NCBI GenBank assembly: GCA_039545315.1
Contig: BCIM01000003.1
Span: 938,147-1,002,146, forward strand
Reading direction: 5' to 3'
Origin: Kondoa malvinella
Lineage: Eukaryota; Basidiomycota; Agaricostilbomycetes; Agaricostilbales; Kondoaceae
Length of the DNA stretch: 64,000 nucleotides
Positions within the stretch are counted from its first letter, which is position 1; every line of letters begins with the position of its first letter. Positions 10,235 through 64,000 of the stretch are shown piece after piece. The notes under the pieces were generated by a model. It saw only the letters and a list, made by a program, of their open reading frames with translations, was not told the DNA's origin and did not search any database. The position numbers and the translations under genes are program-made.

Positions 10235-11916
10235 ATGGTGACCATCAAATTCAATCTCGCTGGAGCAGCAGAGAACAGGAAGCGTAGTCGTTCAGTAGAC
10301 ACGTATCAAGGAAATGAAGAAGACCAAGATTCAATCATTAGCGATGGGAGCGAGGCTGGCGACACATCTCAAGTTCTGCCTGCACACGCTTTGCCTCCCT
10401 CTGTAGCTGCTGGTCGTATGTCTCCCCTCGTATGTTCAGTGATATTAGCTGATCAACGAACGCAGCGGCACCGAAACGAGGCAGAGGTAGACCACGCAAG
10501 AAACCTCGAACTGAAGATCTAGCTGCTCAAGGAGGATACAGCGGAGCAAGCACGCCAATCTCAGTAGGTACACCTGGCTCTGTGGACTCGCCTCTTCCTG
10601 GCACACCTTCGTACTCGCTGGCACCGCAAACGGATCGTTTCGACCGGAGGAAATCTGTGCCTATGCGTGTTGTTGAAGGTCGCACTTATCCTCTTGTGGG
10701 CGATGAGCTTGAACTGGATGAGAATGATGCTGGCGAGGAAAAGATTGACAGAGATGGGAATTTGCTAGGCGGTATGTTCAACTGTTCTCGAGGCGTCTTG
10801 CACAAGCTCAATGTTATTCGCTCAGGCCGAGAGTTCAAATTCGCTACCTTCAACTCTTCCTCTCGACCAAACAAAGATAGACAATACTGTTTATCGATAG
10901 ATGCAGCTCGATGCGTAGGCTACCGAGATTCGCTCTACTTCTTTCGCAAACATCCTCTAGTCTATAAAGTCAATTGCGTCCAAGGCGAAAAAGAGCTCCT
11001 CATCCAACAAGGCAAACTACATCCTAACCTCCGTTCACGCGCTGTTACAATGGTTACTGCTCATAACCTTTTCAAACTGTTTGGTGCGAAAATCATTCGA
11101 AACGGAAAGAATGTGACAGACGATTATGATGAAGTTGCTGCTTTAGCCCAAGGCTTGATTCGAGGTACACCAGCATTACATGAAAGTTATTCAAAAGCGG
11201 AATCGACTTCAGTAGGTAAAGGTATTCAAGACGTTTACCAAACCGAATCGAAAAGCGGTAGACCAGCTGGTAGTACTATGCCTAGGGATTTAGGAGGCGA
11301 GATTATCAAGATTCAATTTGGGGGTAGTGGGATTGCACCGTGGGCGAAATGGGATCCTTCGGGCAAGCAGAGGAAACCTCCGAAAGATTTGGGCGAGCAA
11401 GATTGGATGGTGAAATATGCTCAAGGGGTTGAAGTGAGTAACAAGGCAATCAGGAAATGGAGGACAGGACATTGGAGTGAATTGGAAGGTTGGCAGGTTG
11501 AAGAAGGTCAGAAGAAGCCCAAAGGTGTTGTGTGAGTTCAAAAAAAATCTATCACTCCTACTTTCGTGCTCATTGCTTACAGAAATATGCATACGGCAAT
11601 ACCACACGTCATAGCAGCTTCCCAACCAACATCAGCATCGGTCGAAAGAGTTCACCCTCATCCTGTGATCGACTCGGCAGACACCCGCAATGCTTCTACA
11701 CTTGGATTTTCGTCTGTAGAAGTGGTCACGCAAACAATCGAAGCTCAAGATGAAGAGTCAGAGTTTGAAGCTGCAAAGAGGCTGAGATGGCAGTGTCCTG
11801 GTGGATGGGATTTTCCGACTGACTTTGGACTGGATGTGTGAGCTCTATCTTGCCATACGTGATTGATAGCTGAATTTGTCCGTTGCAGAGGTATGGCTAG
11901 TGCTGAGCAGGCTTGA
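10235..11916 (+). CDS. NPL6: Chromatin-remodelling complex subunit RSC7/Swp82 family
   Basis: Nuclear subunit of RSC/SWI-SNF type remodellers. Start MVTIKFNLAG at 10235. An intron (GTATGT..CGCAG, about 10418-10465) joins an acidic N-terminal exon to APKRGRGRPRKKP, an AT-hook. The large exon carries the family domain: GRTYPLVGDELELDE, KIDRDGNLLGG, FATFNSSSRPNKDRQYCLSIDAARCVGYRDSLYFFRKHPLVYKV and RAVTMVTAHNLFKLFGAKIIRNGKNVTDDYDE. Two more introns follow (after KKPKGV and after FGLD), and the protein ends GMASAEQA at 11916; without the last splice it would end at 11841. It is divergent from RPC34. Confidence 0.85.
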
Positions 11917-14590: not shown

Positions 14591-17500
14591 ATGCGCATAA
14601 CCACCTTAATAGCTCTAGCGAGCTTCGGCCTAGCTCGAGCTGCACCTGGCGCAGACACGGACGATTCTGGCAAGCTTGATCAAACTTTAGTTGGGCAAGA
14701 TACTTCCATCGTTCCAAATGCTTGGATCGTTCAATTGGATGCCACTGAAGATCTAGCTCGTCTAGGCAGGCGAGCGCTGTGGTCCAGACGTAAAGGCGAT
14801 GGCCTTGATGTGTGTCTGCCTGTTCGATTCGTCGGACATGCCCTGAAACCCTCGAACACAGGGATGCAAGAAGCTCTTCTCAAGTTTGGATCAGAAGAAG
14901 GTCAAATACGACCTGAGGCATCAATTCGATGAGAAGCCTGATATCTTCTATGGCGCTTCCATCGATGTGTCCGATAGCGCCGAAGTCGAGGCGATCCGAA
15001 AGATGCCTAACGTCATGGTCGGCCTTTCTGCGTTCGCGTGTTGCGCCAAAGACTCATTGCATACGCAGAATGTCTGGCCTGTTCACAAATTCATACATCC
15101 TAATTACAAGCCAGAAGCGCAACACCCGAAGCGAGACTTTGTTGAAAAGCGTGCTGTTGCATCCGACATCTATCGTATGTACGAATGATAGTCTCTTACA
15201 GCTTGCCTGACGCAAATTTCCAATAGCTCCTCACGAACAGCTAGGTATCAACAGATTGCAGTCCCAAGGCTTGACAGGCAAGGGCGTCAAGGTCGGTATC
15301 CTGGACTATGGCGTAGACTACCTTCATCCAGCTCTTGGTGGCTGTTTCGGCCCAGGCTGCAAGATTGCTTTCGGTATGCACCAGTGCTTCACTATAGAAT
15401 CTGCTGATCAATGATTCAGGCTATGACGTTCTCAGAAACTGTGGGTGCTATAGAAGACGAAGACCGCGTGAAGCTGACGAATGCAAATCTATAGCTGCTG
15501 ATCCCTACGACGATTGCGCTGCTGCCGCGCATGGAACCTCTGTGACCGGCCTCATCGGTGCCAATCGCAATGAGACAGGATTCCTGGGCGTTGCTCCGGA
15601 TGTAAGTGTCTCGTCAGTCTGTAGTCGCCAAAGCTAACAAGATATTAGTCCACTCTCGGTGGTAAACACATCCTTGCGTGCTCAGAGACGGCAGCTCACT
15701 TTGATATAGTTTACAGAGTCTTTGGCTGCCAGGGCGAATCGACAACAGATGCTCTCATACAAGGCTTACTCCGAGCAGCTCAAGACGGTGTAGATGTTAT
15801 CAACCTCTCTGGTGGATCTGCCGGAACCTGGACTTCAGATGCAGTTGCCGTGGTTGCGGACAATGTAGTAAAGCAAGGAATTACTGTAGTCGTGAGTCAA
15901 TGTCTTTGTCGTCCTGGCTCTCTTACTCAAGATTTCTAAAGGTAGCTGCAGGAAACTTTGGCAACCAAGGTTAGAACGGCAAGTCAGACAGCCTGCTCTT
16001 TACTGATCTGTCATTCATAGGCCAATTCTACACGGATCAGCCAGCGAGTGGAAAGAACGTTCTGTCCGTCGGTAGCTCTGCGCCTCGGTAAGCTCTCTTC
16101 TCGCTGTAGAACACATTGACTGACGGGCGCCTAGAAAATTCACCCAATTCACTGCTACCATCACCAACAACGGAAGGGAGCTCGTAAGCGCCCATCTAGT
16201 CTGTCCGAGTTTTCGAGGCTGACTTCGCCCAGCGATACTATGGCTCCCATGCTTTTGTCCCACGCCAACTTAGCCTCTACGTCTTGACAAAAGATACGAC
16301 ACAAGTAGCAGATGGTTGCGCTGCTCTTCCGGCATCGACTCCAGATCTTAGCGGCAACGTTGTTCTCATTCGCAGAGTGCGTTCATTGGTAAGTACTTCG
16401 ACAAGATACTTATTCCTATTTCAGGGTGGATGTGCTGTCATCGACAAGATCCTGAATGCGGCTGCCAAAGGAGTCAGTTGTCCGCTCTTGCATTGTACTA
16501 GGCTGATGCATCTTCATCATCAGGCAGCTGGCGTTCTCAGTGAGTCTGGATGATAGTAAGCGAAGGAGTGACTGAACCTTGTCTAGTCTACAACCAGCCA
16601 GGCGATCCCGTCTTGTATGAAGACGGAGCTCTTTCTGGTTACCCCAGCGGCGATGCAGGTCTGCTGTCTGCTGACGATGGTGAATATGTACGCATTTCTT
16701 GTCAAAATGTTTGGACAGGGCTGAAAATGTGACAGCTGGTCTACCGCGCTAAACAGAATTGGGGAACAACAATCCAGTTCAACAATCCTTTAGTTGGCAT
16801 TGCTAACCAGGAGAATCCTGGTCAAATCACGTATGTAGATCTTACCTCTGTTAAAATACCGCTCACGACTGGACAGCGAACTTCTCGGGGCGGCTTCGCC
16901 ATATGGACCGACTTACGATATGTATCCAGTCCCCAAAGTTCTGGCTCCAGGTGGTGAGTAGATTCATAGCACGTCAGCCCGAGCTGACAGAACGTCCAGA
17001 AAATATCCTCTCCACATTCCCGCGAGTGTTTGGCTATTACTCCTACTTCTCGGGAAGCTCCTTTGCAACACCATTCGTCTCGGTTCGTCTGCAAGCAATT
17101 TGCTGGCTGTCCAGACTTTGACGATGCATGATAGGGAGCTGCCGCGCTTTACATTCAACAAGCAAGGATGATGGGCAAAGATGCCTCGCCGAAAGCTGTA
17201 ATGCAAGCATTCACTACGACAGCAAGACCTGTCTCAGCAGGCAGAGGTCCCGTCACGGTATCTCGTCAAGGCGCTGGTATTTTGGACGCATTCACTGCGG
17301 TCACTGCTACAACTTCAGTGGACAACTCTTTCCTGCTGCTCAACGACACAAACTACTTCCAGGGGAACCAGCAGATCACTCGTCAGTGTCGTCACTTGAT
17401 CTCGTCTAGCTTCTGCTGAACCAAAGACTATAGTCCGCAATGACGGGAAAGATGCTCGCACTTACAGCGTGCTGCACGTTCCAGCGATTACCAGCCTACC

Positions 17501-18420
17501 TTTCCAAGCTGTATGTTGAGCTCAGGGATTCAAACAATGGTCTAAACTTCTGTCTTCAGGGTATCTTCTACCCTTTGCTCAACCCAGACATGTCCGGTGC
17601 CGCTGCTCAAGTAGACATCTCCAACACCAATCTCAGCTTACAACCGGGCGCTTCAACCACTGTGTCAGTCCGCTTCACACCTCCCACTGGGCTCAACAAG
17701 ACGACCTTCCCGATCTACTCAGGCTTCATCTACTTACTGTCGAACGATGCCATTTTACTTAAAGTCCCTTATCTTGGCATGGCTGCTGCGATGCGCGACA
17801 TGCAAGTCATCGATACCGGAGCTGTCATCGCTGGTGCGAAACTGCCTCTCATTGCCGATGGCAACTTCAACATCCAGTCTGGCGAGAAGACGTATACATT
17901 CATGGGTGCAAGTGTACCGAACATCTTTCTGCGGCTTGTCGGTAGGTCTGAGAACACTGTGTGATGTCTCCCGCTGAAGAACGTTTCTAGCGGGCACACC
18001 TAGTCTGATACTGGATGTTCAAGCCGTGCCCGCAGCAGCACCAGGCAGCCGCAACGCTCCACCGCCATACACTGTTGGCACATTCGCGACTGCCAACTAT
18101 GTCGCGAGAAATCCCTCTACGCAGCCAGCATCACCTTTCCAAGTCATAACACAACAGATACCTTGGGACGGCACTGCCAACACAGCTACGGGAAGAGTGG
18201 TCCTGCCAAACGGCTCGTATCGATTGCGATTATTGTTAGTCTCGGCCATCTCACACAACGCTCAGTCACTCATCTTGCCCATCTAGTGCTCTCAAGATTA
18301 CAGGAAACCCAGACGTTCAGGCAGACTATGAGTGAGTTTCTCCCACGGAGGTGATTGGCCGACGATTGAGGAACATATCACAGATCATGGAGTTCGCCTT
18401 TAATCACCATCGCACGCTGA
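14591..18420 (+). CDS. Secreted subtilisin-like serine protease (S8) with I9-type propeptide
   Basis: Extracellular or vesicular endopeptidase. Signal peptide MRITTLIALASFGLARA, then an I9-like propeptide (WIVQLDATEDL..., KKVKYDLRHQFDEKPDIFYGAS, SAEVEAIRKMPNV). Catalytic triad: Asp in VGILDYGVDYLHP (15304-15306), His in AAHGTSVTGLIGAN (15530-15532), Ser in FSGSSFATPFVS (17059-17061); the oxyanion Asn region reads AAGNFGNQG. A PA-like insert with GGCAVIDKI lies between His and Ser. The C-terminal part is the beta-rich region of Vpr/cucumisin-like fungal subtilases. More than a dozen short introns; the last joins DYE|SWSSPLITIAR with stop at 18420. It sits 767 bp upstream of, and in the same direction as, the repeat-peptide precursor. 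Some splice sites remain uncertain. Confidence 0.9.
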
Positions 18421-19187
18421 CCTACTCCTTCGCTAATTCTACGTGGTGCTACTCTTCGTTTTTACTGTACATGTTTGGTCTCTGATGATGCCTGGCGGGA
18501 GTTGGGGTAATAATAAGGTGCCTGAAGATCCGGGGGAGACGCGTTCTCTGACGAGATGCAATCTCATGGCGATGGCTTGCGCATGCAAGAACTGCGCTCA
18601 ACAGATGTGAATCAAATGGTTTGTACGAGATGATTGGATTGAAACAAAGTCCGAGATATTGTCATGCATGATTTCGATCTGTTCCTTCCCCTGCGCTGTA
18701 GTTCTCTTGTTGCGATCAGCCTTCACGAGCGACGATCAAAGACCACCGAGGCGCTCTTCAGCCTTGTGTGACGCCCCTTGGCGCTGAGACACATCTTTCA
18801 AGCGTCATACTTCGACGCGGCAGCAATCCTTGCCGCGTGTCTCTCGTCGACGCTCTTAGCGTTGTCTCCGATCTGCGCCTGTATACGTCTTTCTGCTTGC
18901 TTGCTGCTTCCTCTGCAGTGCTCACACACGTTCCAAAAAGGCCATCTTGACACGAAAACGAAAAAAACCGTTCAGAACGTCAACTTTCGCGAACATCTTG
19001 TTTCTACCTTAGCGTGAACGCCTCATTGCACACGCCGAAAGACTATTTGAGTTCACCCGCTGTCTGCCGGACGCCCATTGAGCCTCGAGTACCCTTCGCT
19101 CGACGACGAATACTGCTTGTTCACCAATTGTCAACTTGCACACGACCTAACGAGCCACTCTTTTAACGACTTCGTATACGAATCATA
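18421..19187. promoter_or_regulatory. Probable promoter and 5'UTR of the repeat-peptide gene
   Basis: 767 bases between the subtilase stop and the peptide-precursor start. No coding frame is convincing. The last 200 bases contain CT-rich and A-rich tracts, as in many fungal leaders. No specific factor site is claimed. Confidence 0.4.
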
Positions 19188-20197
19188 ATGAAGTTCTTCG
19201 CCATCTTCGCTGCTTTGGCCGTGGCCTCGGTCTCCGCCATGCCTGCTCCTACCCAAGCACCAGCCGTATGTTTCTTACAGCATTGTCATCTAGCATCGAT
19301 CTGATGTAAGCTGCAGGTTGAAGCTCGTCAATTCGGTGCTGAGACCACTGGCGCTGGACCCAATGGAGCTCGCCCATGGAGAGCATGGAAGAAGGATGTA
19401 AGTCTCGCCTCAGCCTGATCGAGCGCAAGCTCATTTTGAGCCAGGAGATTGAGGAGCGTCAATTTGGTGCTGAAACCACTGGTGCTGGACCAAACGGAGC
19501 TCGCCCATGGAGAGCCTGGAAGAAGGACGTGAGTCTCTATATAGCCGTNNTGCAAANNNNAGCTCNCTNTTGAGCCAGGAGATTGAGGAGCGTCAATTTG
19601 GTGCTGAAACTACTGGTGCTGGACCCAACGGAGCTCGCCCATGGAGAGCATGGAAGAAGGATGTAAGTTTGCACGGCCATCACCCGTAACCAAACTTACG
19701 ATCAAACCAGGAGATCGAAGAGCGTCAATTCGGTGCTGAGACCACAGGCGCCGGACCCAACGGAGCTCGCCCATGGAGAGCCTGGAAGAAGGACGTAAGC
19801 GTCTCATTGGTCGTGATCCCAGACATAGACTTATTTTATCAACGAAACAGGAGATTGAGGGGCGTCAATTCGGTGCCGAAACCACTGGCGCTGGACCAAA
19901 TGGGGCCCGTCCATGGAGAGCATGGAAGAAGGATGTAGGTCTTCACATAGTCGTGCTCCGAAACAAAATCTGACTGTTAATTCAGGAGATCGAAGAGCGC
20001 CAATTCGGTGCTGAAACCACTGGAGCTGGACCCAACGGAGCTCGCCCATGGAGAGCCTGGAAGAAGGATGTATGCCTCTCCTTAGCCATTATCGGGACAC
20101 AGTCTCATTGACGAAACAGGAAATTGAAGAGCGTCAATTCGGTGCTGAAACCACTGGAGCTGGGCCCAACGGAGCTCGCCCATGGAGAGCCTGGTGA
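19188..20197 (+). CDS. Secreted precursor with seven tandem copies of a 20-residue peptide
   Basis: Eight exons: 19188-19265, 19317-19397, 19445-19528, 19579-19662, 19711-19794, 19851-19934, 19986-20069 and 20120-20197, giving 218 residues. Exon 1 encodes the signal peptide MKFFAIFAALAVASVSA and a short pro-region. Each of the other seven exons encodes one QFGAETTGAGPNGARPWRAW unit. Copies are separated by KKDEIEER (one EIEGR variant; the first copy follows VEAR), so a dibasic KK suits a Kex2-type protease and Arg precedes each Gln. All introns are phase 0 and their sequences differ, while exons vary mainly at silent positions, so selection acts on the peptide. The layout is that of kexin-processed fungal peptides. 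The start (polar-Phe-Gly-Ala) and Gly-Ala-x-Pro-Trp resemble the Cryptococcus quorum-sensing peptide Qsp1. Function is inferred. Several n bases lie in the intron at 19529-19578. Confidence 0.85.
19317..20194 (+). repeat. Seven tandem exon repeats of about 130 bp (exon 81-84 nt plus intron 47-56 nt)
   Basis: The exon parts are near identical; the intervening introns are of unequal length (47, 50, 48, 56, 51 and 50 nt) and little alike apart from splice sites. The array grew by duplication of a symmetrical phase-0 exon, after which introns diverged. Confidence 0.85.
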
Positions 20198-20455: not shown

Positions 20456-21394
20456 CTAGTTGTCACACCTAGAAGGCCTCCTACGATTGCAGAACCACGT
20501 GCGTACTTGCTTCTCGGTCTAGCGGAGACACATCAGCTACGAATCCCAGTGATTTAGGAATTTCCAGCGACTTACCAAACCAGTAGCAGACGCGACTTCC
20601 GACACCTCGTCATACACAGGGTACTGCACTCTAGCCCACAGTTGCTCCAACCGCATGATCTGGAACGTCGAAAAGTTACTCCTTGATCTTCCTTGCCAAG
20701 GAGATCCCGAAACCCTTCGAGGTGATTGCTCGAATTGCTGCTCTGGTATTTCTGGTTCTTGATATATTCGAGGGATTGGGCTTTGAGCTGGAGAGCCATT
20801 CGAATTGAGCGAAGGTGGGTAAGAAGAATATGGTGAGGAAGGGTCATAGCTTGATCCTTGGTCGATACTGCCGCGGCTGCTAAAGTAGGAGCGACTTGTT
20901 GAAGCCGAGTACGCGGAAGGAGAAGGTGCAGGGTAGTTGTAGCTGAAGGAAGATGAGCTGGAATATGAAGGCTTGCGAAGCATAGCGTTTTCTGGGTCTG
21001 TGATGGAAGTCGATCTGGGGAACAAGTTGTCTTGCATGCTGGATCTGGTCACTGATTGACGCGGAGCTCTGTAGGATGTAGGAGACGCGTTTGAGGTGTC
21101 CAATTGAGTATCTGCTGTGCTCCATCTACGAGCTCGTGAAGGCGGTAGAAATGCAGAGTCGCCAGTTGGGTAAGGCGAGAGTAAATGTGGAGAGGTCTCG
21201 CCTGGAAAGCTTTGGATAGGAGGTAGTAGCTGCTCTTGAACTTCACTTGGGTCGTAGTCGAGCAATGATAAGGAGCGAAGTGGAGGCAGTTGAGTGCGAG
21301 ATCTTGTTCGATCTGAACCTTGAGGGCGAGCGGGAAATGTGTAATCCATTTCAGGCAATGGAGGCAGGAGCAAAACGCCAAAAGGATATTGCAA
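20456..21394 (-). CDS. Homeodomain transcription factor (homeodomain at the extreme C-terminus)
   Basis: Predicted nuclear DNA-binding regulator of 293 residues (or 278 from the Met at 21349). Exon 1 (21394-20576) is Ser/Pro/Tyr-rich and disordered, then enters the homeodomain: RSNFSTFQIMRLEQLWARVQYPVYDEVSEVASATGL (helices 1 and 2, with conserved Leu and Tyr-Pro). A 57-nt intron (20519-20575) leads to exon 2, which supplies the recognition helix TEKQVRTWFCNRRRPSRCDN and a stop. The WF-x-N-R-R signature is intact; Cys at the variable position is unusual. The protein ends straight after helix 3. No partner homeodomain gene, CaaX pheromone or receptor is nearby, so I do not call it a mating-type gene. 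It converges on the peptide-precursor gene (258 bp between stops). Confidence 0.8.
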
Positions 21395-21894
21395 AGCAAC
21401 TTTGGAATCTGAATTAAGACAAAGTGAACAGTCACAGGACTTCGGTAGTCATCGAATCTATGACAAGAGTCAGAGCGCTGCCGGAAGTAATCCTTCGGGA
21501 GTCCGCCAATCTGCGCTATGGCGGCTGTTTCCTATTTCTTCGCAAGAGGTGTGCATGGCTGAGGAATCAACTTGCGATGAATGTAGAACTCTAATGGCAT
21601 AGCAACAGAACAGATAAGACAGGCAAGTGACCAGTAAAGCTCAACACGCGAGACAGTAGTGGACCAGCGCACGGACAAGGCACGACAGGCGCCCGCATGA
21701 CCTGCGAAGGGAAAGGTAGGAGCGCCGTTTAGACAATTTCGACGTTGACGGATCCACGGCGATAGAGAGATCTGTCATACGGGCCGCTCTAGCGAGAGCA
21801 GCCTGAACAGTTCTTGTAAAGCATATTAGACATGTTGAAGATATTCGACGAGGCCCTCTGATCGATAAGTCACCAGAGAAGGCCGCAAAGAGAG
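21395..21894. other. Intergenic region between homeobox gene and MPV17-family gene
   Basis: About 500 bases 5' of two divergent genes. Short frames on either strand lack motifs. It probably holds both promoters. Confidence 0.45.
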
Positions 21895-47106: not shown

Positions 47107-47651
47107 TGTGGAAGCAAGTAGGGTTTGTTGGTTGAGGTGACGAAATGTACAAGTGGTTTTTCTGCTGTGACCAGCTGTGATGACAAGCTTCACAACCGAT
47201 CTCGTTATCTAGCATGCTGCTCTTCTCAACTCGTTCAGACTCGGGCACGCTAGAGTGAAAATTGTGGATGCCTGAATCAGTTTCCACACGACGGGCAAGG
47301 GAGGTGTCCCGGTCAACCACTTGTTTGTAACTTGACCGGCTGTCAAGTTTGCTGTCAATTGGGCCCACATCGGAGATAAGCTGGAGCGCTTAGATGGGAT
47401 TTTCCAGCGTGAGCCTCTCGAAAAGAACGCTGCATTGAAGCGATAGGTGCTCGCCGGCACACGCGTAAAGCAGTCTGTACACTCGAGCTCGCCTCGTGGT
47501 GTGAGATTAAGCTGAGCATTTTTGTAAATTTCAATTTCAAGACAAGGGAATTTGATACGACTGTATACATTGACAAAGAGTATCCCGCATTGATGTGTGT
47601 GGCAGAGTTTGCGTTTCAGGCTTCGGTCTAGCCATGAAAGCAAATGTCGAG

Positions 47652-48376
47652 CTACATAGAGAAGACTGAGTTCTCAGGATACTCATGTTGCGGCTGCAGC
47701 TTCGTCAGCTGATGACACCCTGCAGCAAGCTGGAAGCCACTCACAGGCAAACTGATGACTCCCGACTTGGCCACTTTAGGCGAGTACGAAACAAAGTGCT
47801 GTTCTCGGTTGTCGTGCTTCGAGTGCCCGTGAGCGTTGACGTGTCGAACAGCAGTGTCGCCGCAGGAGAGTCTTCGAGTGAAATCGTCGATGGTGCCATT
47901 CATAGCGAGACGAAGTTCTTCAGCTGAAAACGTTTGACAGAAAGTCAGCTGCTTTTGTCGTCTGCATGGACATGCGAAGACTTACCAGCATCGCAAATCC
48001 TTTTGACATCAGCGGCCCTGACCTCTGACCATTCTGGCTCATCGAATNATCCATGACCTTTGATTCGCTCTTGCAATTCGTGCATTGCTTGCTTCAATTC
48101 TGCTTTACCACGAGCAACAACCTCTTGATTCACCAGATGAGTCTGTTCTCTTTCCTGATCGGTATGATGCGCCAATCCGTCCTAACAATCACACGAGAAA
48201 GTCAGTGCAGACAATTACTTTCAACAAAGCGACTAACACCTAGCGTGTCGAGCATATCATTGATTGTTCCTCTAATGACTGAGCAGCGGGAGCGAAGACA
48301 CGTCAGATAAAGTGGTGACGGATTAACATGACTCACTTTCACCAGTAGCATGAGCGGTGTGAATGATGTCTTGCAT
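47652..48376 (-). CDS. Small helical protein of an unrecognised paralogous family, left-arm copy A
   Basis: Four exons; intron phases 1, 0, 1. Exon 1 encodes MQDIIHTAHATGE, exon 2 (41 nt) IIRGTINDMLDTLG, exon 3 DGLAHHTDQEREQTHLVNQE...GKAELKQAMHELQERIKGHG...VKRICDA, exon 4 AEELRLAMNGTIDDFTRR followed by a His/Ser-rich tail (182 residues in all). One residue is undetermined (n at 48048). The right-arm copy differs in its tail. I do not recognise the family; no signal peptide or membrane segment is seen, and the middle is probably helical. Confidence 0.6.
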
Positions 48377-48876
48377 AATTGGAGAAGTGAAGAGTGTTAT
48401 CACAGTTTTAATGGTTGTACGAAGAGAGCAAGAGAAAGAGAGAGGAACCGTTCGCTCGCGAGAATTTGGTCATGCGAATGCGTGCGACTGGTGCCGGCGC
48501 GCACGACGTACGACAGAAAGCTTGGGAGAACAAGGATCTCTAGATTCGCACGCTATGGTATGCAACACCTTGGCGTTCCAGAGGTTGTGCCACAGAAGTG
48601 ACTCACAAAACTGACAGAAGAATCGCTGTCAAAGCCTGGGAAGACTAAGCGGCGAAGCCTTGTAGTCAAATGATGTATTCGTATACCACCAATCAATGAC
48701 GAACGTAGCCTTCGTGAGCCAGCAGCGAAAATTTGTCGTCGTCACGTCCANTTGCGACTCGCGAGCAGGAAAAGAGGATCAAGTTGTTTGTACCTGAGGC
48801 TGAGAATGGCTATGACAGACTATCACACTACATATCGTCATTNCATTGCTCCAGAAGACTCGCTCTTATCCCTTAT

Positions 48877-49622
48877 TCACTTGCGAGCTAAACAGCTGGA
48901 AGAAGCATCTGAGGTATCTGAGGAAACCTCGCCGAAATCAGGTGCTGAACGGCGGACAGTCGATCTAAGCGGCTCGTCGGTAGAAGGCGTCCAGATGTGG
49001 TCGGTGAACGGAACAGCCTTGTAATTGTTGCTGAGTTGCGGAAGTGTANTTGACCGGCGAAGGGGAGACAAGCAGTCATCTCGTTTGAAGGGAGCAGAGT
49101 GTGCTAGACCAGTAATAAAGCAATCTATGGTCGAATTGAGGTCGAGTCGTAAGCCCTCCGCTATAAGGTTTGAGTCAGATTGGACGAAGAGTTGAGGAGA
49201 GGTGATGAGAACTCACTTGCGATGTATGCGCTCCTCACACCTGCTTCTATTGCTGTATTCCATTCCTCTCGTCCAGCGATCCTGCAGCCGATTACTGATT
49301 GACCTTTTAGATCGGCCATATTCTTTTGCAAGTCAAGTTTGCCTTGCTGAATGATTTGCATGTTGCGTAAGTGCGCGAACTGAGCGTAGTGAAGCTCGCT
49401 GGGAGAGCTATCGAGTCCGTTCTGTGGTAGCGCAGAGGTTAGTGTGGTTGTTAGGCCATGTATCGCAGGCGATACCTCTAGCGCGTCAAGCATTTCATTG
49501 ATGCTCGCTTTGATGACTGCACATAGCCATGCTTTTTAACCGACATCTCTAAATCATAGAGAAGCAAACGGACTGTAACTTTGGGCTATTGTGATTCGAT
49601 CGACGCAAGCTTGGACGCCCAT
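48877..49622 (-). CDS. Small helical protein of the same family, left-arm copy B
   Basis: Mirror copy of 61790-62535; see that entry for the exon-by-exon reading. 192 residues with undetermined bases at 49049 (in exon 4). Same exon pattern as copy A: 41-nt second exon and intron phases 1, 0, 1. Conserved texts are IIKASINEMLDALE, QQGKLDLQKNMADLKGQ and EGLRLDLNSTIDCF. Confidence 0.6.
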
Positions 49623-50198
49623 TTGATGGAGGCAAAGAGGTGTGGTTTGAGGAGCGTAAGCAACGATGAGAATGGTCAGACGAGAGAAGCAAGCAAGAAG
49701 GAGCAAGATTTTGTCATGCCAAAGGCAATCGCGGAAAGAATCGCACGGGCAGATGAACAACTGCGAGGAGACAAGAGCATCTGCCGTGAGTCGTCGAGGA
49801 ATACGTTGTGCGCCAGCGGATATGTCGATAAGGCAGGAGAGCTTTGTGAACTTGACTGCCACCACTTGTTTCCCCCCTTGCCTCTTTTCAATNGGGATTC
49901 AAGGCCAGCAGCATCAGATCCGATCCTTTGATAAAGCAGAGCAGCCATTAGCAAAACTCGAGTCGTTGATGCGAGCAGAAGGAAGCACTTCTCGATTTTG
50001 TGCAGTGCAACAGCGTTGCCGTATTGACTGGCTCTCTTGCGTGGCTTGAGCTGTGCTTCTTGTGTAGTAATTGCTCTCCCTGGCTACTTTCGGCGGACGC
50101 AATCTCCCGTATCTGTGTTCACAAGATCTACCGATAACGATTTACATACATTGAACGGATATCCTATCTACACACAACAACAGCCCAGTTCAAAGTCA
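49623..50198. other. Arm region without a supported gene (left)
   Basis: 576 bases between copy B and the 189-residue gene, both minus strand. Several overlapping short frames exist on both strands, with one undetermined base at 49893; none shows a motif or splice continuation. Confidence 0.4.
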
Positions 50199-50768
50199 TC
50201 AGATAGACTCTTGTTTCAGCCGCTTCTCAGTTCGCGCTTGCCTGGCTGCTCGTTTGAAGTCCAGCAAGAAGTTTCGGATCAGCAGGCTATCTCGCAAGCC
50301 TGTACTCCTTTCAGCGTTGCTCAGAACGCGATGGCCTGGAAGAAGACGTTTCTTGCTTGGTCGGAATTCAACCATTGTATCCAGCCATTGAACCTCTTCT
50401 GTCGCCGGCCATTGACTGCCCCGTTGCTCATCGATGACCGTCTCGTTTGTCCGACCTCTGCTCGCTGCTTTGCCATCCCATCGAATGATTACGAATCCTA
50501 ATTTAGATTTTGCTGATGACTCTGAAGCTGGAGCTGTTTCTGTTATTGAATTTGAAGCATGACGACTGCGATCTACTACAACTGGAGCCGCTGTTGGTGT
50601 TGTTTGATCGGGTGCTAGGCGAGCTGGGTCGAAATACAGGGAATAGAATTCTTCCTCGATTGGTCTAGTTTCTGCCTGATACCCGATCTGCACAGGCGTT
50701 TGAGGCGTCCAAGTCCCCGCATGGGTGATTTCTAGCGCGATTTGGAAAAGGTTGCCTGATACGAACAT
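50199..50768 (-). CDS. Unrecognised 189-residue protein, left-arm copy
   Basis: Single long frame MFVSGNLFQIALEITHAGTW...RTEKRLKQESI, identical to the right-arm copy at 60644-61213. It has a Ser/Thr/Pro-rich middle and a basic C-terminal helix (FLLDFKRAARQARTEKRLKQ). A splice acceptor (TATAG) lies just 5' of the ATG, so an upstream exon is possible. No family recognised. It diverges from the DUF1275 gene. Confidence 0.5.
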   Translation of the reverse strand: MFVSGNLFQIALEITHAGTWTPQTPVQIGYQAETRPIEEEFYSLYFDPARLAPDQTTPTAAPVVVDRSRHASNSITETAPASESSAKSKLGFVIIRWDGKAASRGRTNETVIDEQRGSQWPATEEVQWLDTMVEFRPSKKRLLPGHRVLSNAERSTGLRDSLLIRNFLLDFKRAARQARTEKRLKQESI

Positions 50769-50970
50769 TCAATCTATACCAGCGCATGTCAGCCAAGCGC
50801 TCCTTCAACTGCCGAACGACAACTCACTTGCAGTAATTCGAGAACAGAATGGTCGTGAGAAGCAGGTCTGACTGTTACTGGAAGAATGATTGAAAATGGC
50901 CAAGGCTTATGTCACTGCTGAGCTGACGCGTAATAAAGTATGCCTGGCCCATCTTTTGCTCACACCGCGA

Positions 50971-52020
50971 ATGCTTTCTTCACCAAGCGCCTTGGAGAGC
51001 CAGCCTTTACTCCCTAATGCTCAGCGTGGATTCTGGGACTGCGCAGTGTGTGAGGATTTCCCAAATGATCCACTTCTACCAGCGCTCATTGGGCTCAGAT
51101 CCACACTCTTGCTTGCCAGCGCTATGTCTGATGTCCATTGTTACTGGCATCACAAGTTTTGTGGCATTTCGTGAGACAGGCGTCTGGAACGGCGTAAATC
51201 TCTCGACCTGCTCTTTTGCTTGAAGCTGCTCAAAACCCTGCGCGACTACAGTTTCTGACTGGATCTACACTTCAATCCTTTGCGAGTATCACGAAGAATG
51301 GAAGCTTGGTTCCTGCAGACTACGATCGAGCACTTTCAATTCTGCTTTTCGGGGTTGGTTGCTCGATTGGTGGCATAACGTGTCGACATGTGGGCGGGCC
51401 GACTCGCAGAGGTCTGGTTACCCGGTCACTCATCTCAGCCTTCGCTATTCTCTGTGCCGCAATCAGTCTCTTTGCAAGTCAAGCTGAAAACACTAATTGG
51501 AATTCCATAGGTGGTCAATTGTGAGCCTTCAACTGTTTGACGGTGTTGGCTCACCAGCTGAAAAGCCCAAAAACAAAAGCTCCTTAGCTGCCTTGTCAAT
51601 GTCGGCTGGTCTTCAAGCTATTGATGGTCTTCTGCTCGACACGTACTTCCAGTGAGGCTCTAACAGGTCATTCGAACGTCCGCTAATGCTGCTCTCCGCC
51701 GGCAGAACGACCGTGGTGCAAACCAATGTTTGGATTGGCCTCTTTACTACTCCGTAAGTGAAGACTCCTTAGCCAAATTTGTACTCTACTCATTGCAGAG
51801 AAGACTACATAAGCTGGCAAGGTTTCGCTACACCCCCGAACGAGATATGCGCATCTTTTCTCTGCTCTTCCTTGGACTCGGCGCAGTCTCAGCTCAGTGG
51901 ATTCTAAATTGTGACAATACTCTACACGGTCAAGCAGGCACGCTCTTTCTCGCGGCAATTTGCAAGATTCTTGTCAGTGCAAGCTGGCTGGTAGTGCGAG
52001 ACGATAAAGATGTTGGATGA
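50971..52020 (+). CDS. DUF1275 (YoaK-like) membrane protein, left-arm copy
   Basis: Multi-pass membrane protein. Exons: MLSSPSALESQPLLPNAQRGFWDCA|RSLGSDPHSCLPALCLMSIVTGITSFVAFRETGVWNG|FLTGSTLQSFASITKNG...RALSILLFGVGCSIGGITCRHVGGPTRRGL...AILCAAISLFASQAE|...SSLAALSMSAGLQAIDG|...RTTVVQTNVWIGLFTTP|KFVLYSLQRRLHKL...MRIFSLLFLGLGAVSAQWIL, ending WLVVRDDKDVG. TGSTL, the GGPTRRG turn, LSMSAGLQA and TTVVQTNVW line up with the DUF1275 motifs TGNT, GPRRR, ALQ-G-Q and TTVVLTSVY. Predicted about six membrane segments. Function of the family is unknown. The family call is from memory of motif order. Confidence 0.7.
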
Positions 52021-52263
52021 AACCTGCTCATTTCAGCTTGTGTGTGCAAATCCTTCGAGATGTCGATAATGTTGCAAATTTCTACCTCTGGCTCCGCTTA
52101 GACAGCATTATGCGCAGTACGCCGCGTGAAATTTACTTCCTTGCGGACAAAGTCGCGGTGATTTGGTCATGCACTTGGTGATCGCTAAAGCTCTTTCGTC
52201 TTCAGCTCTTTCTTCCTCTCCACTCTATCAAGCACTCCACAAGCACCCTAAACTCATACAATT

Positions 52264-59318: not shown

Positions 59319-59391
59319 AGCCAGAGGTAGAAATTTGCAACATTATCGACATCTCGAAGGATTTGCACACACAAGCTGAAATGAGCAGGTT

Positions 59392-60441
59392 TCATCCAAC
59401 ATCTTTATCGTCTCGCACTACCAGCCAGCTTGCACTGACAAGAATCTTGCAAATTGCCGCGAGAAAGAGCGTGCCTGCTTGACCGTGTAGAGTATTGTCA
59501 CAATTTAGAATCCACTGAGCTGAGACTGCGCCGAGTCCAAGGAAGAGCAGAGAAAAGATGCGCATATCTCGTTCGGGGGTGTAGCGAAACCTTGCCAGCT
59601 TATGTAGTCTTCTCTGCAATGAGTAGAGTACAAATTTGGCTAAGGAGTCTTCACTTACGGAGTAGTAAAGAGGCCAATCCAAACATTGGTTTGCACCACG
59701 GTCGTTCTGCCGGCGGAGAGCAGCATTAGCGGACGTTCGAATGACCTGTTAGAGCCTCACTGGAAGTACGTGTCGAGCAGAAGACCATCAATAGCTTGAA
59801 GACCAGCCGACATTGACAAGGCAGCTAAGGAGCTTTTGTTTTTGGGCTTTTCAGCTGGTGAGCCAACACCGTCAAACAGTTGAAGGCTCACAATTGACCA
59901 CCTATGGAATTCCAATTAGTGTTTTCAGCTTGACTTGCAAAGAGACTGATTGCGGCACAGAGAATAGCGAAGGCTGAGATGAGTGACCGGGTAACCAGAC
60001 CTCTGCGAGTCGGCCCGCCCACATGTCGACACGTTATGCCACCAATCGAGCAACCAACCCCGAAAAGCAGAATTGAAAGTGCTCGATCGTAGTCTGCAGG
60101 AACCAAGCTTCCATTCTTCGTGATACTCGCAAAGGATTGAAGTGTAGATCCAGTCAGAAACTGTAGTCGCGCAGGGTTTTGAGCAGCTTCAAGCAAAAGA
60201 GCAGGTCGAGAGATTTACGCCGTTCCAGACGCCTGTCTCACGAAATGCCACAAAACTTGTGATGCCAGTAACAATGGACATCAGACATAGCGCTGGCAAG
60301 CAAGAGTGTGGATCTGAGCCCAATGAGCGCTGGTAGAAGTGGATCATTTGGGAAATCCTCACACACTGCGCAGTCCCAGAATCCACGCTGAGCATTAGGG
60401 AGTAAAGGCTGGCTCTCCAAGGCGCTTGGTGAAGAAAGCAT
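59392..60441 (-). CDS. DUF1275 (YoaK-like) membrane protein, right-arm copy
   Basis: Mirror of 50971-52020, with identical reading frames; the domain evidence given there applies. No difference between the two copies was seen in the translated pieces. Confidence 0.7.
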
Positions 60442-60643
60442 TCGCGGTGTGAGCAAAAGATGGGCCAGGCATACTTTATTACGCGTCAGCTCAGCAGTGA
60501 CATAAGCCTTGGCCATTTTCAATCATTCTTCCAGTAACAGTCAGACCTGCTTCTCACGACCATTCTGTTCTCGAATTACTGCAAGTGAGTTGTCGTTCGG
60601 CAGTTGAAGGAGCGCTTGGCTGACATGCGCTGGTATAGATTGA

Positions 60644-61213
60644 ATGTTCGTATCAGGCAACCTTTTCCAAATCGCGCTAGAAATCACCCATGCGGGGACT
60701 TGGACGCCTCAAACGCCTGTGCAGATCGGGTATCAGGCAGAAACTAGACCAATCGAGGAAGAATTCTATTCCCTGTATTTCGACCCAGCTCGCCTAGCAC
60801 CCGATCAAACAACACCAACAGCGGCTCCAGTTGTAGTAGATCGCAGTCGTCATGCTTCAAATTCAATAACAGAAACAGCTCCAGCTTCAGAGTCATCAGC
60901 AAAATCTAAATTAGGATTCGTAATCATTCGATGGGATGGCAAAGCAGCGAGCAGAGGTCGGACAAACGAGACGGTCATCGATGAGCAACGGGGCAGTCAA
61001 TGGCCGGCGACAGAAGAGGTTCAATGGCTGGATACAATGGTTGAATTCCGACCAAGCAAGAAACGTCTTCTTCCAGGCCATCGCGTTCTGAGCAACGCTG
61101 AAAGGAGTACAGGCTTGCGAGATAGCCTGCTGATCCGAAACTTCTTGCTGGACTTCAAACGAGCAGCCAGGCAAGCGCGAACTGAGAAGCGGCTGAAACA
61201 AGAGTCTATCTGA
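60644..61213 (+). CDS. Unrecognised 189-residue protein, right-arm copy
   Basis: Translation identical to the left copy (50768-50199). Divergent from the DUF1275 gene, 202 bp between starts. Confidence 0.5.
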   Translation: MFVSGNLFQIALEITHAGTWTPQTPVQIGYQAETRPIEEEFYSLYFDPARLAPDQTTPTAAPVVVDRSRHASNSITETAPASESSAKSKLGFVIIRWDGKAASRGRTNETVIDEQRGSQWPATEEVQWLDTMVEFRPSKKRLLPGHRVLSNAERSTGLRDSLLIRNFLLDFKRAARQARTEKRLKQESI

Positions 61214-61789
61214 TGACTTTGAACTGGGCTGTTGTTGTGTGTAGATAGGATATCCGTTCAATGTATGTAAATCGTTATCGGTAGATCTTGTGAACACAGA
61301 TACGGGAGATTGCGTCCGCCGAAAGTAGCCAGGGAGAGCAATTACTACACAAGAAGCACAGCTCAAGCCACGCAAGAGAGCCAGTCAATACGGCAACGCT
61401 GTTGCACTGCACAAAATCGAGAAGTGCTTCCTTCTGCTCGCATCAACGACTCGAGTTTTGCTAATGGCTGCTCTGCTTTATCAAAGGATCGGATCTGATG
61501 CTGCTGGCCTTGAATCCCNATTGAAAAGAGGCAAGGGGGGAAACAAGTGGTGGCAGTCAAGTTCACAAAGCTCTCCTGCCTTATCGACATATCCGCTGGC
61601 GCACAACGTATTCCTCGACGACTCACGGCAGATGCTCTTGTCTCCTCGCAGTTGTTCATCTGCCCGTGCGATTCTTTCCGCGATTGCCTTTGGCATGACA
61701 AAATCTTGCTCCTTCTTGCTTGCTTCTCTCGTCTGACCATTCTCATCGTTGCTTACGCTCCTCAAACCACACCTCTTTGCCTCCATCAA
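61214..61789. other. Arm region without a supported gene (right)
   Basis: Mirror of 49623-50198; nothing recognised, one undetermined base at 61519. Confidence 0.4.
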
Positions 61790-62535
61790 ATGGGCGTCCA
61801 AGCTTGCGTCGATCGAATCACAATAGCCCAAAGTTACAGTCCGTTTGCTTCTCTATGATTTAGAGATGTCGGTTAAAAAGCATGGCTATGTGCAGTCATC
61901 AAAGCGAGCATCAATGAAATGCTTGACGCGCTAGAGGTATCGCCTGCGATACATGGCCTAACAACCACACTAACCTCTGCGCTACCACAGAACGGACTCG
62001 ATAGCTCTCCCAGCGAGCTTCACTACGCTCAGTTCGCGCACTTACGCAACATGCAAATCATTCAGCAAGGCAAACTTGACTTGCAAAAGAATATGGCCGA
62101 TCTAAAAGGTCAATCAGTAATCGGCTGCAGGATCGCTGGACGAGAGGAATGGAATACAGCAATAGAAGCAGGTGTGAGGAGCGCATACATCGCAAGTGAG
62201 TTCTCATCACCTCTCCTCAACTCTTCGTCCAATCTGACTCAAACCTTATAGCGGAGGGCTTACGACTCGACCTCAATTCGACCATAGATTGCTTTATTAC
62301 TGGTCTAGCACACTCTGCTCCCTTCAAACGAGATGACTGCTTGTCTCCCCTTCGCCGGTCAANTACACTTCCGCAACTCAGCAACAATTACAAGGCTGTT
62401 CCGTTCACCGACCACATCTGGACGCCTTCTACCGACGAGCCGCTTAGATCGACTGTCCGCCGTTCAGCACCTGATTTCGGCGAGGTTTCCTCAGATACCT
62501 CAGATGCTTCTTCCAGCTGTTTAGCTCGCAAGTGA
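61790..62535 (+). CDS. Small helical protein of the unrecognised family, right-arm copy B
   Basis: Exons 61790-61838, 61896-61936 (41 nt), 61991-62195 and 62252-62535; phases 1, 0, 1; 192 residues. MGVQACVDRITIAQSY|IIKASINEMLDALE|NGLDSSPSELHYAQFAHLRN...QQGKLDLQKNMADLKGQ...AGVRSAYIA|EGLRLDLNSTIDCFITGLAHS plus a Ser/Thr/Pro-rich tail. Intron 2 is 54 nt, so reading through it keeps the frame; the splice is supported by the GTATCG donor, two CTAAC branch sites and alignment with copies A and C. One residue undetermined (n at 62363). Confidence 0.65.
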
Positions 62536-63035
62536 ATAAGGGATAAGAGCGAGTCTTCTGGAGCAATGNAATGACGATATGTAGTGTGATAGTCTGTCAT
62601 AGCCATTCTCAGCCTCAGGTACAAACAACTTGATCCTCTTTTCCTGCTCGCGAGTCGCAANTGGACGTGACGACGACAAATTTTCGCTGCTGGCTCACGA
62701 AGGCTACGTTCGTCATTGATTGGTGGTATACGAATACATCATTTGACTACAAGGCTTCGCCGCTTAGTCTTCCCAGGCTTTGACAGCGATTCTTCTGTCA
62801 GTTTTGTGAGTCACTTCTGTGGCACAACCTCTGGAACGCCAAGGTGTTGCATACCATAGCGTGCGAATCTAGAGATCCTTGTTCTCCCAAGCTTTCTGTC
62901 GTACGTCGTGCGCGCCGGCACCAGTCGCACGCATTCGCATGACCAAATTCTCGCGAGCGAACGGTTCCTCTCTCTTTCTCTTGCTCTCTTCGTACAACCA
63001 TTAAAACTGTGATAACACTCTTCACTTCTCCAATT

Positions 63036-63634
63036 ATGCAAGACATCATTCACACCGCTCATGCTACTGGTGAAAGTGAGTCATGTTAATCCGTCACCAC
63101 TTTATCTGACGTGTCTTCGCTCCCGCTGCTCAGTCATTAGAGGAACAATCAATGATATGCTCGACACGCTAGGTGTTAGTCGCTTTGTTGAAAGTAATTG
63201 TCTGCACTGACTTTCTCGTGTGATTGTTAGGACGGATTGGCGCATCATACCGATCAGGAAAGAGAACAGACTCATCTGGTGAATCAAGAGGTTGTTGCTC
63301 GTGGTAAAGCAGAATTGAAGCAAGCAATGCACGAATTGCAAGAGCGAATCAAAGGTCATGGATNATTCGATGAGCCAGAATGGTCAGAGGTCAGGGCCGC
63401 TGATGTCAAAAGGATTTGCGATGCTGGTAAGTCTTCGCATGTCCATGCAGACGACAAAAGCAGCTGACTTTCTGTCAAACGTTTTCAGCTGAAGAACTTC
63501 GTCTCGCTATGAATGGCACCATCGACGATTTCACTCGAAGACTCCTGCGGCGACACTGCTGTTCGACACGTCAACGCTCACGGGCACTCGAAGCACGACA
63601 ACCGAGAACAGCACTTTGTTTCGTACTCGCCTAA
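63036..63634 (+). CDS. Small helical protein of the unrecognised family, right-arm copy A with altered tail
   Basis: Exons 63036-63075, 63134-63174 (41 nt), 63231-63426 and 63489-63634; 140 residues. Same as the left copy up to TIDDFTRR, after which a 2-bp deletion relative to the left arm (GAGTCTTC against GAGAGTCTTC) shifts the frame to an Arg-rich tail (LLRRHCCSTRQRSRALEARQ) and an earlier stop. In the left copy the tail is 42 residues longer. Confidence 0.6.
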
Positions 63635-64000
63635 AGTGGCCAAGTCGGGAGTCATCAGTTTGCCTGTGAGTGGCTTCCAGCTTGCTGCAGGGTGTCATCA
63701 GCTGACGAAGCTGCAGCCGCAACATGAGTATCCTGAGAACTCAGTCTTCTCTATGTAGCTCGACATTTGCTTTCATGGCTAGACCGAAGCCTGAAACGCA
63801 AACTCTGCCACACACATCAATGCGGGATACTCTTTGTCAATGTATACAGTCGTATCAAATTCCCTTGTCTTGAAATTGAAATTTACAAAAATGCTCAGCT
63901 TAATCTCACACCACGAGGCGAGCTCGAGTGTACAGACTGCTTTACGCGTGTGCCGGCGAGCACCTATCGCTTCAATGCAGCGTTCTTTTCGAGAGGCTCA

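What the first reader, a model, noticed from the sequence alone, without database searches (positions are those of the whole stretch)
19188..20197. Secreted precursor of seven near-identical 20-residue peptides, resembling a quorum-sensing peptide
Signal peptide followed by seven copies of QFGAETTGAGPNGARPWRAW separated by KKDEIEER. Exon differences are almost all synonymous, so the peptide is under selection. Layout is that of kexin-processed peptides. The polar-F-G-A start and G-A-x-P-W near the end recall the Cryptococcus peptide Qsp1, which comes from a single-copy precursor; alpha-factor-like repeat precursors are not the usual pheromone type in basidiomycetes. If real, this is a multi-copy secreted signal or effector not tied to a known family.
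Basis: partly seen in the sequence, partly recalled or inferred. Interest (0 to 1): 0.9.

Follow-up and report, generated by a model that had tools for sequence, protein, structure and literature searches.

The report
Seven-copy Qsp1-like fungal signal peptide gene
A fungus carries an eight-exon gene for a secreted-looking protein that holds seven identical copies of a small peptide resembling the Cryptococcus quorum-sensing peptide Qsp1, right beside a gene for the same general type of protease that matures Qsp1, so it may be a many-copy version of that cell-to-cell signal.

Summary
Window 19188-20197 (+) is an eight-exon gene, all seven introns phase 0, for a 218-aa precursor with seven identical copies of QFGAETTGAGPNGARPWRAW. 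The 15 minimal base changes among the cores are all synonymous. No other locus was found in the 19.09-Mb genome. New here: (1) the next gene upstream, same strand, ending 767 bp before the ATG, is an S8/PA/fn3_5 (pyrolisin-type) subtilase, the only fn3_5 match in the genome; Qsp1 is matured by Pqp1, a pyrolisin-subfamily subtilase. (2) Its residue at the subtilisin Gly166 position is Asp, which fits cutting after Arg; every copy follows E-x-R. Eight of eleven Qsp1 residues are shared, including the Gly changed in the published inactive Qsp1. Best reading: a multi-copy Qsp1-type signal matured by its neighbour and probably re-imported. The kexin reading is weaker: N-side sites are monobasic. 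Homology to Qsp1 and orthology of the protease to Pqp1 are unproven; import and function are inferred.

The parts
19188..19265 (+). exon 1: secretion-signal-like start (MKFFAIFAALAVASVSA, cleavage site judged by eye) and start of the pro-region MPAPTQAPA
   Evidence: hydrophobic core; no signal-peptide predictor was run
19317..19397 (+). exon 2: VEAR + peptide copy 1 (core 19329-19388) + KKD
19445..19528 (+). exon 3: EIEER + copy 2 (core 19460-19519) + KKD
19579..19662 (+). exon 4: EIEER + copy 3 (core 19594-19653) + KKD
19711..19794 (+). exon 5: EIEER + copy 4 (core 19726-19785) + KKD
19851..19934 (+). exon 6: EIEGR + copy 5 (core 19866-19925) + KKD
19986..20069 (+). exon 7: EIEER + copy 6 (core 20001-20060) + KKD
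20120..20197 (+). exon 8: EIEER + copy 7 (core 20135-20194) + stop; no KK tail
19266..20119 (+). span of the seven phase-0 introns (19266-19316, 19398-19444, 19529-19578, 19663-19710, 19795-19850, 19935-19985, 20070-20119). Introns 2, 3, 5, 6 and 7 include pairs that are still related (z above 3); intron 4 reaches z 2.6 at most and intron 1 z 1.5 at most
14591..18420 (+). upstream neighbour: 23-exon gene for a 913-aa pyrolisin-type subtilase (S8 + PA + fn3_5) with a secretion-signal-like start, D/H/S motifs and oxyanion Asn present, Asp349 at the subtilisin Gly166 position; proposed maturation protease
   Evidence: exon model built by hand
18421..19187 (+). 767-bp stretch between subtilase stop and precursor ATG (promoter and 5' UTR of the precursor)

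Best explanation
The gene makes a secreted prepro-protein that is cut outside the cell into up to seven copies of one signalling peptide, a multi-copy counterpart of Cryptococcus Qsp1. SHOWN by sequence: gene architecture, seven identical cores, selection on the cores, the Qsp1-like [N/Q]FGA...PxGAxPW pattern, and the adjacent pyrolisin-type subtilase with an acidic residue at the S1-floor position. INFERRED: (a) the N-terminus directs secretion; (b) the neighbouring subtilase cuts after the Arg of VEAR/EIEER/EIEGR, freeing N-terminal Gln, which may cyclise to pyroglutamate; (c) the C side is made either by cutting at KK with carboxypeptidase trimming (20-mer ...RAW), or by cutting after the internal Arg18 (PWR|AW) with trimming to a 17-mer ending in Pro-Trp as Qsp1 does (Arg15-Pro16 should resist cutting); (d) the peptide is taken back up by an OPT-family transporter (OPT matches at two places in this genome) and acts on transcription as a density signal. 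The array grew by duplication of an exon-plus-intron unit from a one-copy, two-exon ancestor. Because every exon has a length divisible by three, skipping exons would change dose without changing the peptide.
For: Architecture and all-synonymous core changes. The introns diverged while the peptide did not (only 6 of 21 intron pairs above z 3), so identity is not explained by homogenisation alone. 8 of 11 Qsp1 residues identical with one 6-residue insertion; 26 of 20,000 shuffles score as well and 3 of 20,000 carry FGA..GAxPW. The Gly whose change to Ala makes the published inactive Qsp1 is kept. The only fn3_5 match found in the genome lies in the immediate same-strand neighbour; stretches of the four other S8 places were fetched and none is close to it (tblastn best E 0.008). 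Pqp1 = CNAG_00150 is in the pyrolisin subfamily. Asp349 aligns with Gly166 of subtilisin; that column is Ser in 102 of 121 and D/E in 6 of 121 aligned proteins, window included; a passage reports that Asp at Gly166 moves specificity to P1 Lys. In C. neoformans CNAG_03012 (QSP1) shares an intergenic region with CNAG_03013, which is OPT1, so linkage of the peptide gene to a pathway partner has a precedent. OPT and WOPR matches exist.
Against: No homologue found, so neither the peptide nor its linkage could be followed through relatives; that method needs shared 5-residue words and similar length and would not be expected to find a single-copy Qsp1, so the negative says little. The Qsp1 match is short, gapped, in Gly/Ala-rich sequence, and was chosen after the fact. 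The subtilase is not shown to be the Pqp1 orthologue: the paper puts CNAG_00150 in clade sf3 and the Basidiomycota pyrolisins in sf2; the window protein sits on a long branch beside three Mortierella/Linnemannia hits (support 0.90); and the four Kwoniella hits do not carry an acid at the S1 position. In this genome no OPT match lies on the precursor's contig, and three motif patterns found no Qsp1-like frame in the six 10-kb stretches fetched around the two OPT places. OPT and WOPR families are common in fungi, so their presence is weak support. A 17-20-mer is longer than 11-residue Qsp1 for OPT uptake. No expression data.
Confidence: 0.52

Rival explanations
1. An ordinary KEX2-processed repeat protein (KEP) of unknown function: kexin cuts after KK in the linker and carboxy- and aminopeptidases trim the rest; the likeness to Qsp1 is convergent and the subtilase next door is coincidence.
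For: KEPs are widespread (7878 in 1345 of 1461 strains; Tremellomycetes average 1.00 per strain; passages of PMC7329392). The genome has a kexin-like gene: S8 match at C2:630546-631349 with VDDGLD and HGGTSAAAP read by eye in L054.
Against: The N-side of each copy is E-x-R, not KR/RR. After KK cutting, DEIEER would remain on the N side. By my estimate (about 7000 genes, not counted here) a single-copy gene of the expected protease class lands next door with odds near 3 in 10,000, or a few times more if OPT or WOPR neighbours would also have counted.
Confidence: 0.28
2. A secreted antimicrobial or host-directed peptide, made in many copies for dose rather than for signalling.
For: Identical multi-copy cores suit bulk production; the 20-mer is cationic (pI 9.6) and has two Trp.
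Against: The 17-residue part that matches Qsp1 is slightly acidic to neutral (pI 6.0); no cysteines; no UstYa match (but nothing rang in its controls).
Confidence: 0.1
3. An alpha-factor-like mating pheromone acting through a GPCR.
For: Repeat precursor with secretion-signal-like start; alpha-type-looking KEPs are reported in basidiomycetes (passages of PMC6339444).
Against: STE3-type receptor matches at three places and no STE2 match (nothing rang in its controls, so absence is not shown). The spacers between copies carry no XA/XP (STE13-type) pairs and the peptide has no CAAX end.
Confidence: 0.04
4. A repetitive protein that works on the hyphal wall, in the manner of the Rep1-derived peptides of Ustilago maydis, whether or not it is cut.
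For: Repeat structure with polar linkers; Rep1 peptides are said to control hyphal wall properties (passage of PMC6339444).
Against: The 20-mer is strictly identical while a linker varies; it is short and hydrophilic (GRAVY -0.9); the first and last copies mark likely peptide ends.
Confidence: 0.06

Closest known systems
Qsp1/Pqp1/Opt1 quorum-sensing system of Cryptococcus neoformans
   Same: Pro-peptide with xFGA...PxGAxPW core, 8 of 11 residues identical; a subtilase of the same subfamily type (pyrolisin) available for maturation; peptide gene next to a pathway-type partner gene; OPT and WOPR matches in the genome.
   Different: Seven copies, each on its own exon; peptide 17-20 residues instead of 11; linked to the protease rather than to the transporter; orthology of the subtilase to Pqp1 undetermined; import and signalling untested.
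KEX2-processed repeat proteins (KEPs) of fungi
   Same: Secretion-signal-like start and tandem peptide copies separated by short linkers.
   Different: No KR/RR; monobasic E-x-R sites; every repeat on its own phase-0 exon. The terms intron and exon do not occur in the held main texts of PMC6339444 and PMC7329392.
Ascomycete alpha-type pheromone precursors
   Same: Repeat layout of identical short peptides.
   Different: No STE13-type spacer between copies; no STE2 match found in the genome (not conclusive); STE3 receptor matches present.

Membership tests
Qsp1 family | Mature peptide sequence related to NFGAPGGAYPW | tested here: inconclusive
   8 of 11 identical with a 6-residue insertion; 26 of 20,000 shuffles as good; chosen post hoc
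Qsp1 family | Residue needed for activity: second Gly of PGGAYPW (inactive form has Ala) | tested here: met
   PNGARPW keeps that Gly in the alignment; inactive peptide from PMC5959073 passages
Qsp1 family | Secretion-signal-like stretch before the peptide | tested here: met
   by eye and hydropathy; no predictor run and secretion itself not tested
Qsp1 family | Maturation by Pqp1 or its orthologue | tested here: inconclusive
   pyrolisin-type subtilase adjacent; orthology to CNAG_00150 not shown; cleavage not testable
Qsp1 family | Import by Opt1 and intracellular action | not testable with these tools
   OPT matches at two places; function needs experiment
Qsp1 family | Shared synteny with QSP1-OPT1 (CNAG_03012/03013) | tested here: not met
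   OPT matches lie on contigs C5 and C8, the precursor on C3
KEX2-processed repeat proteins | Repeats separated by KEX2 sites (KR/RR, less often KK) | tested here: inconclusive
   only KK, in 6 of 6 linkers; none between the signal-like stretch and copy 1
Dikaritin/ustiloxin RiPPs | UstYa (DUF3328) partner | tested here: inconclusive
   no match in the genome, but no control rang
Alpha-factor pheromones | STE2-type receptor | tested here: inconclusive
   no match, but no control rang
Pfam DUF7406 (PF24155) | score over the curated cut-off | tested here: not met
   19.4 bits against 28.4; no match in the genome, and of the 14 control genomes the family rings in two, both archaea: judged a chance match

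The most novel reading that the evidence does not exclude
Imported-peptide quorum sensing of the Qsp1 type is older and wider than Cryptococcus, and here forms a two-gene cassette: a seven-copy signal precursor with one peptide per exon, so that signal dose can be tuned by splicing or copy number, beside its own Arg-specific pyrolisin maturation protease.
Probability: 0.3. Interest if true: 0.82.

Novelty: new variant of a known kind. Interest (0 to 1): 0.63.

Why it matters
A passage of PMC7537855 calls the Qsp1 system the first described of its kind in a eukaryote; I know of no account of its evolutionary origin and found none in the listings of my searches. A second, divergent form with a different copy number and a physically linked protease would show which parts of the system are essential (the xFGA...GxPW core, the subtilase) and give a simple genomic handle, the neighbours of pyrolisin genes, for finding more such signals. 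Exon-per-peptide architecture would also be a clear case of a signal precursor whose dose can change without any change of the signal.

Tried and rejected
Protein database: a 78-aa two-copy abridged precursor gave 3 candidates, none E<=10; for the full 218 aa the 7997 candidates sharing most words were scored, none E<=10. The database does hold fungal proteins, Kwoniella among them. DUF7406 as a family: rejected as chance. Second Qsp1-like gene beside the OPT places: none by three motif patterns in six 10-kb stretches; an FG-rich tandem repeat in L043 looks like a nucleoporin (by eye). Another Qsp1-like motif in the window: one weak QFGG...APW frame at 11314, inside the ORF with the Rsc7/Swp82 domain, dismissed. 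Antisense ORF 19331-19609 (93 aa): no domain sought, judged spurious because the sense reading explains the sequence. Other S8 genes: read by eye, L054 kexin, L055 proteinase K type, L056 tripeptidyl-peptidase II type, L057 unclassified; not confirmed with Pfam. Window gene content: Pfam was run on 40 ORFs of the 179 stop-to-stop frames of 90 or more codons, so gene content is known in part. Organism: an IMPDH piece is identical in 181 of 247 residues (73%) to chain 4af0 (that 4af0 is from C. neoformans is recalled), and none of the 120 listed of 696 subtilase hits is over 40% identical; I infer a basidiomycete well away from Cryptococcaceae, order unknown. The large-subunit rRNA search never ran. 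No Rfam or tRNA match in the window. Synteny with C. neoformans could only be taken from papers (the listing). Structure prediction was not used: the spliced protein is not readable letter for letter from the DNA, which the tool requires.

Papers: passages only of PMC7537855, PMC6339444, PMC7329392, PMC2848560, PMC5371821, PMC6687208, PMC8092252, PMC8092302, PMC5158083, PMC9296135 (64, only a reference-list line), PMC3378952, PMC5959062, PMC5959073; other titles seen in listings only. No listed title in searches is about a repeat Qsp1 precursor; most of those papers were not opened. The 2018 mating paper and the 2016 Qsp1 paper (its DOI recalled) are not held; the 2007 Qsp1 paper was not looked up.

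Full report
Observation. The gene 19188-20197 (+) has eight exons and seven phase-0 GT-AG introns of 47-56 nt; the spliced frame is MKFFAIFAALAVASVSA-MPAPTQAPAVEAR followed by seven copies of QFGAETTGAGPNGARPWRAW with KKDEIEER (5 of 6) or KKDEIEGR (1 of 6) between them, and ends at the last Trp. Donor sites match GTRNGY in 7 of 7 here and in 16 of 22 introns of my model of the upstream gene. Retention of an intron brings a stop within 15 codons in 6 of 7 cases; intron 5 gave none in the 30 codons printed. All exon lengths are multiples of three.

Is it under selection? The seven cores differ at 14 nucleotide columns, all third positions, with a minimum of 15 changes, none altering a residue; with changes treated as independent the chance is 1e-9 to 5e-9. 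Could it be recent copying? Core DNA identity averages 91% (range 83-98%), while the introns between repeats average 71% in a lax alignment, no better than shuffled sequence (71%). A stricter test shows that some introns are still related: 6 of 21 pairs are above z 3, all among introns 2, 3, 5, 6 and 7; intron 4 reaches 2.6 and intron 1 only 1.5. So the array most likely arose by duplication of an exon-plus-intron unit long enough ago for introns to drift, and the peptide has been kept in each copy. Homogenisation alone does not explain this, though some gene conversion is possible.

Uniqueness. In the 19.09-Mb assembly the degenerate core pattern is found 7 times, all here (reverse 0, control 0), and a protein search at E<=10, in which only the best candidates are scored, gives eight matches, one for each exon of this gene. 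No homologue was found in the large protein set, but that method needs shared 5-residue words and similar length and would not be expected to find a single-copy Qsp1.

What lies beside it. The next gene upstream, same strand, is a subtilase. I assembled 23 exons by hand (14591-18420, 913 aa); Pfam finds Peptidase_S8 (E 7.7e-41), PA (1.6e-12) and fn3_5 (1.2e-15). Asp (ILDYGVDY), His (AHGTSVTG), Ser (SGSSFATP) and the oxyanion Asn are present, although the motif neighbours are unusual (DYG for the common DTG/DSG, GSS for GTS). The fn3_5 family rings only here in the genome (a domain split by introns could be missed). Stretches of the four other S8 places show at best E 0.008 to it and look, by eye, like kexin, a proteinase K type, tripeptidyl peptidase II and one unclassified. 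A paper read in passages gives the pyrolisin subfamily its usual Fn3-like domain and places CNAG_00150 in that subfamily; another states that CNAG_00150 is Pqp1, the peptidase that cuts pro-Qsp1. The flanking genes otherwise look ordinary: a WD40 protein upstream of the subtilase, and a gene on the other strand downstream with a weak homeodomain match below cut-off.

Does the protease fit the sites? All copies are preceded by E-[A/E/G]-R. Residue Asp349 of the subtilase aligns with position 166 of subtilisin, the floor of the S1 pocket; a passage in PMC3378952 says that Asp in place of Gly166 shifts specificity towards P1 Lys. Across 121 aligned proteins (the 120 listed of 696 database hits, plus the window) the column is Ser in 102 and acidic in 6. 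So this enzyme is of an uncommon kind that should prefer a basic P1. Against this: the four Kwoniella relatives are not acidic there, so if they stand for Pqp1, specificity is not shared; and the position is an alignment inference with a one-residue gap nearby, not a structure.

Likeness to Qsp1. The best local alignment pairs FGA------PGGAYPW with FGAETTGAGPNGARPW: 8 identities over 10 aligned residues of the 11-mer. Composition-preserving shuffles reach the score in 26 of 20,000 and the FGA..GAxPW pattern in 3 of 20,000. The Gly whose change to Ala gives the published inactive peptide (NFGAPGAAYPW) is retained. The internal Arg18 gives a second possible cut, PWR|AW, after which trimming would leave a C-terminal Pro-Trp as in Qsp1; Arg15 is followed by Pro and should be spared (established protease behaviour, not tested).

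Linkage in Cryptococcus. [quoted passage not shown] others identify CNAG_03012 as QSP1 and CNAG_03013 as OPT1, the importer. Thus in C. neoformans the peptide gene is next to its importer; here it is next to a protease of the maturation type. The OPT matches of this genome are on other contigs (C5, C8), with no Qsp1-like frame found by three motif patterns in the six 10-kb stretches fetched around them.

Conclusion (odds are my judgement). Gene and selected multi-copy peptide: near certain (about 0.95). Secreted and processed into free peptide: likely (0.85-0.9). Processing by the neighbouring subtilase: more likely than not (0.55). Qsp1-type signal: about 0.5. True homology to Qsp1: open, about 0.5. 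The kexin label should be dropped or kept only for the KK side. The organism is inferred to be a basidiomycete outside the Cryptococcus family (IMPDH piece 73% identical), otherwise unnamed.

Noticed in passing
47410-52093 and 59319-64000: Perfect inverted repeat: arms of 4226 nt and 459 nt, 100% complementary, with 7225 nt between the main arms; it reaches the window end and ambiguous bases sit at mirrored positions in the two arms. Could be an inversion-prone locus or an assembly product; the three ORFs tried in the arms gave no Pfam match.
   Followed up: partly
19549-19569: Eight N calls inside intron 3 of the precursor, the only Ns of the window outside the inverted repeat; hints at assembly trouble or allelic difference in the array.
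   Followed up: no
14591-18420: Very intron-dense subtilase (22 introns in about 2.7 kb of CDS) with unusual motif neighbours (DYG, HGTS, GSSFA) and a long branch in the tree.
   Followed up: partly
20540-21448: Gene on the minus strand just downstream with a weak homeodomain match (E 0.00078, below cut-off).
   Followed up: no
G000 C1:381458, C1:818376, C2:2363711-2364746: STE3-type pheromone receptor matches at three places in the genome, two of them on the same contig.
   Followed up: no
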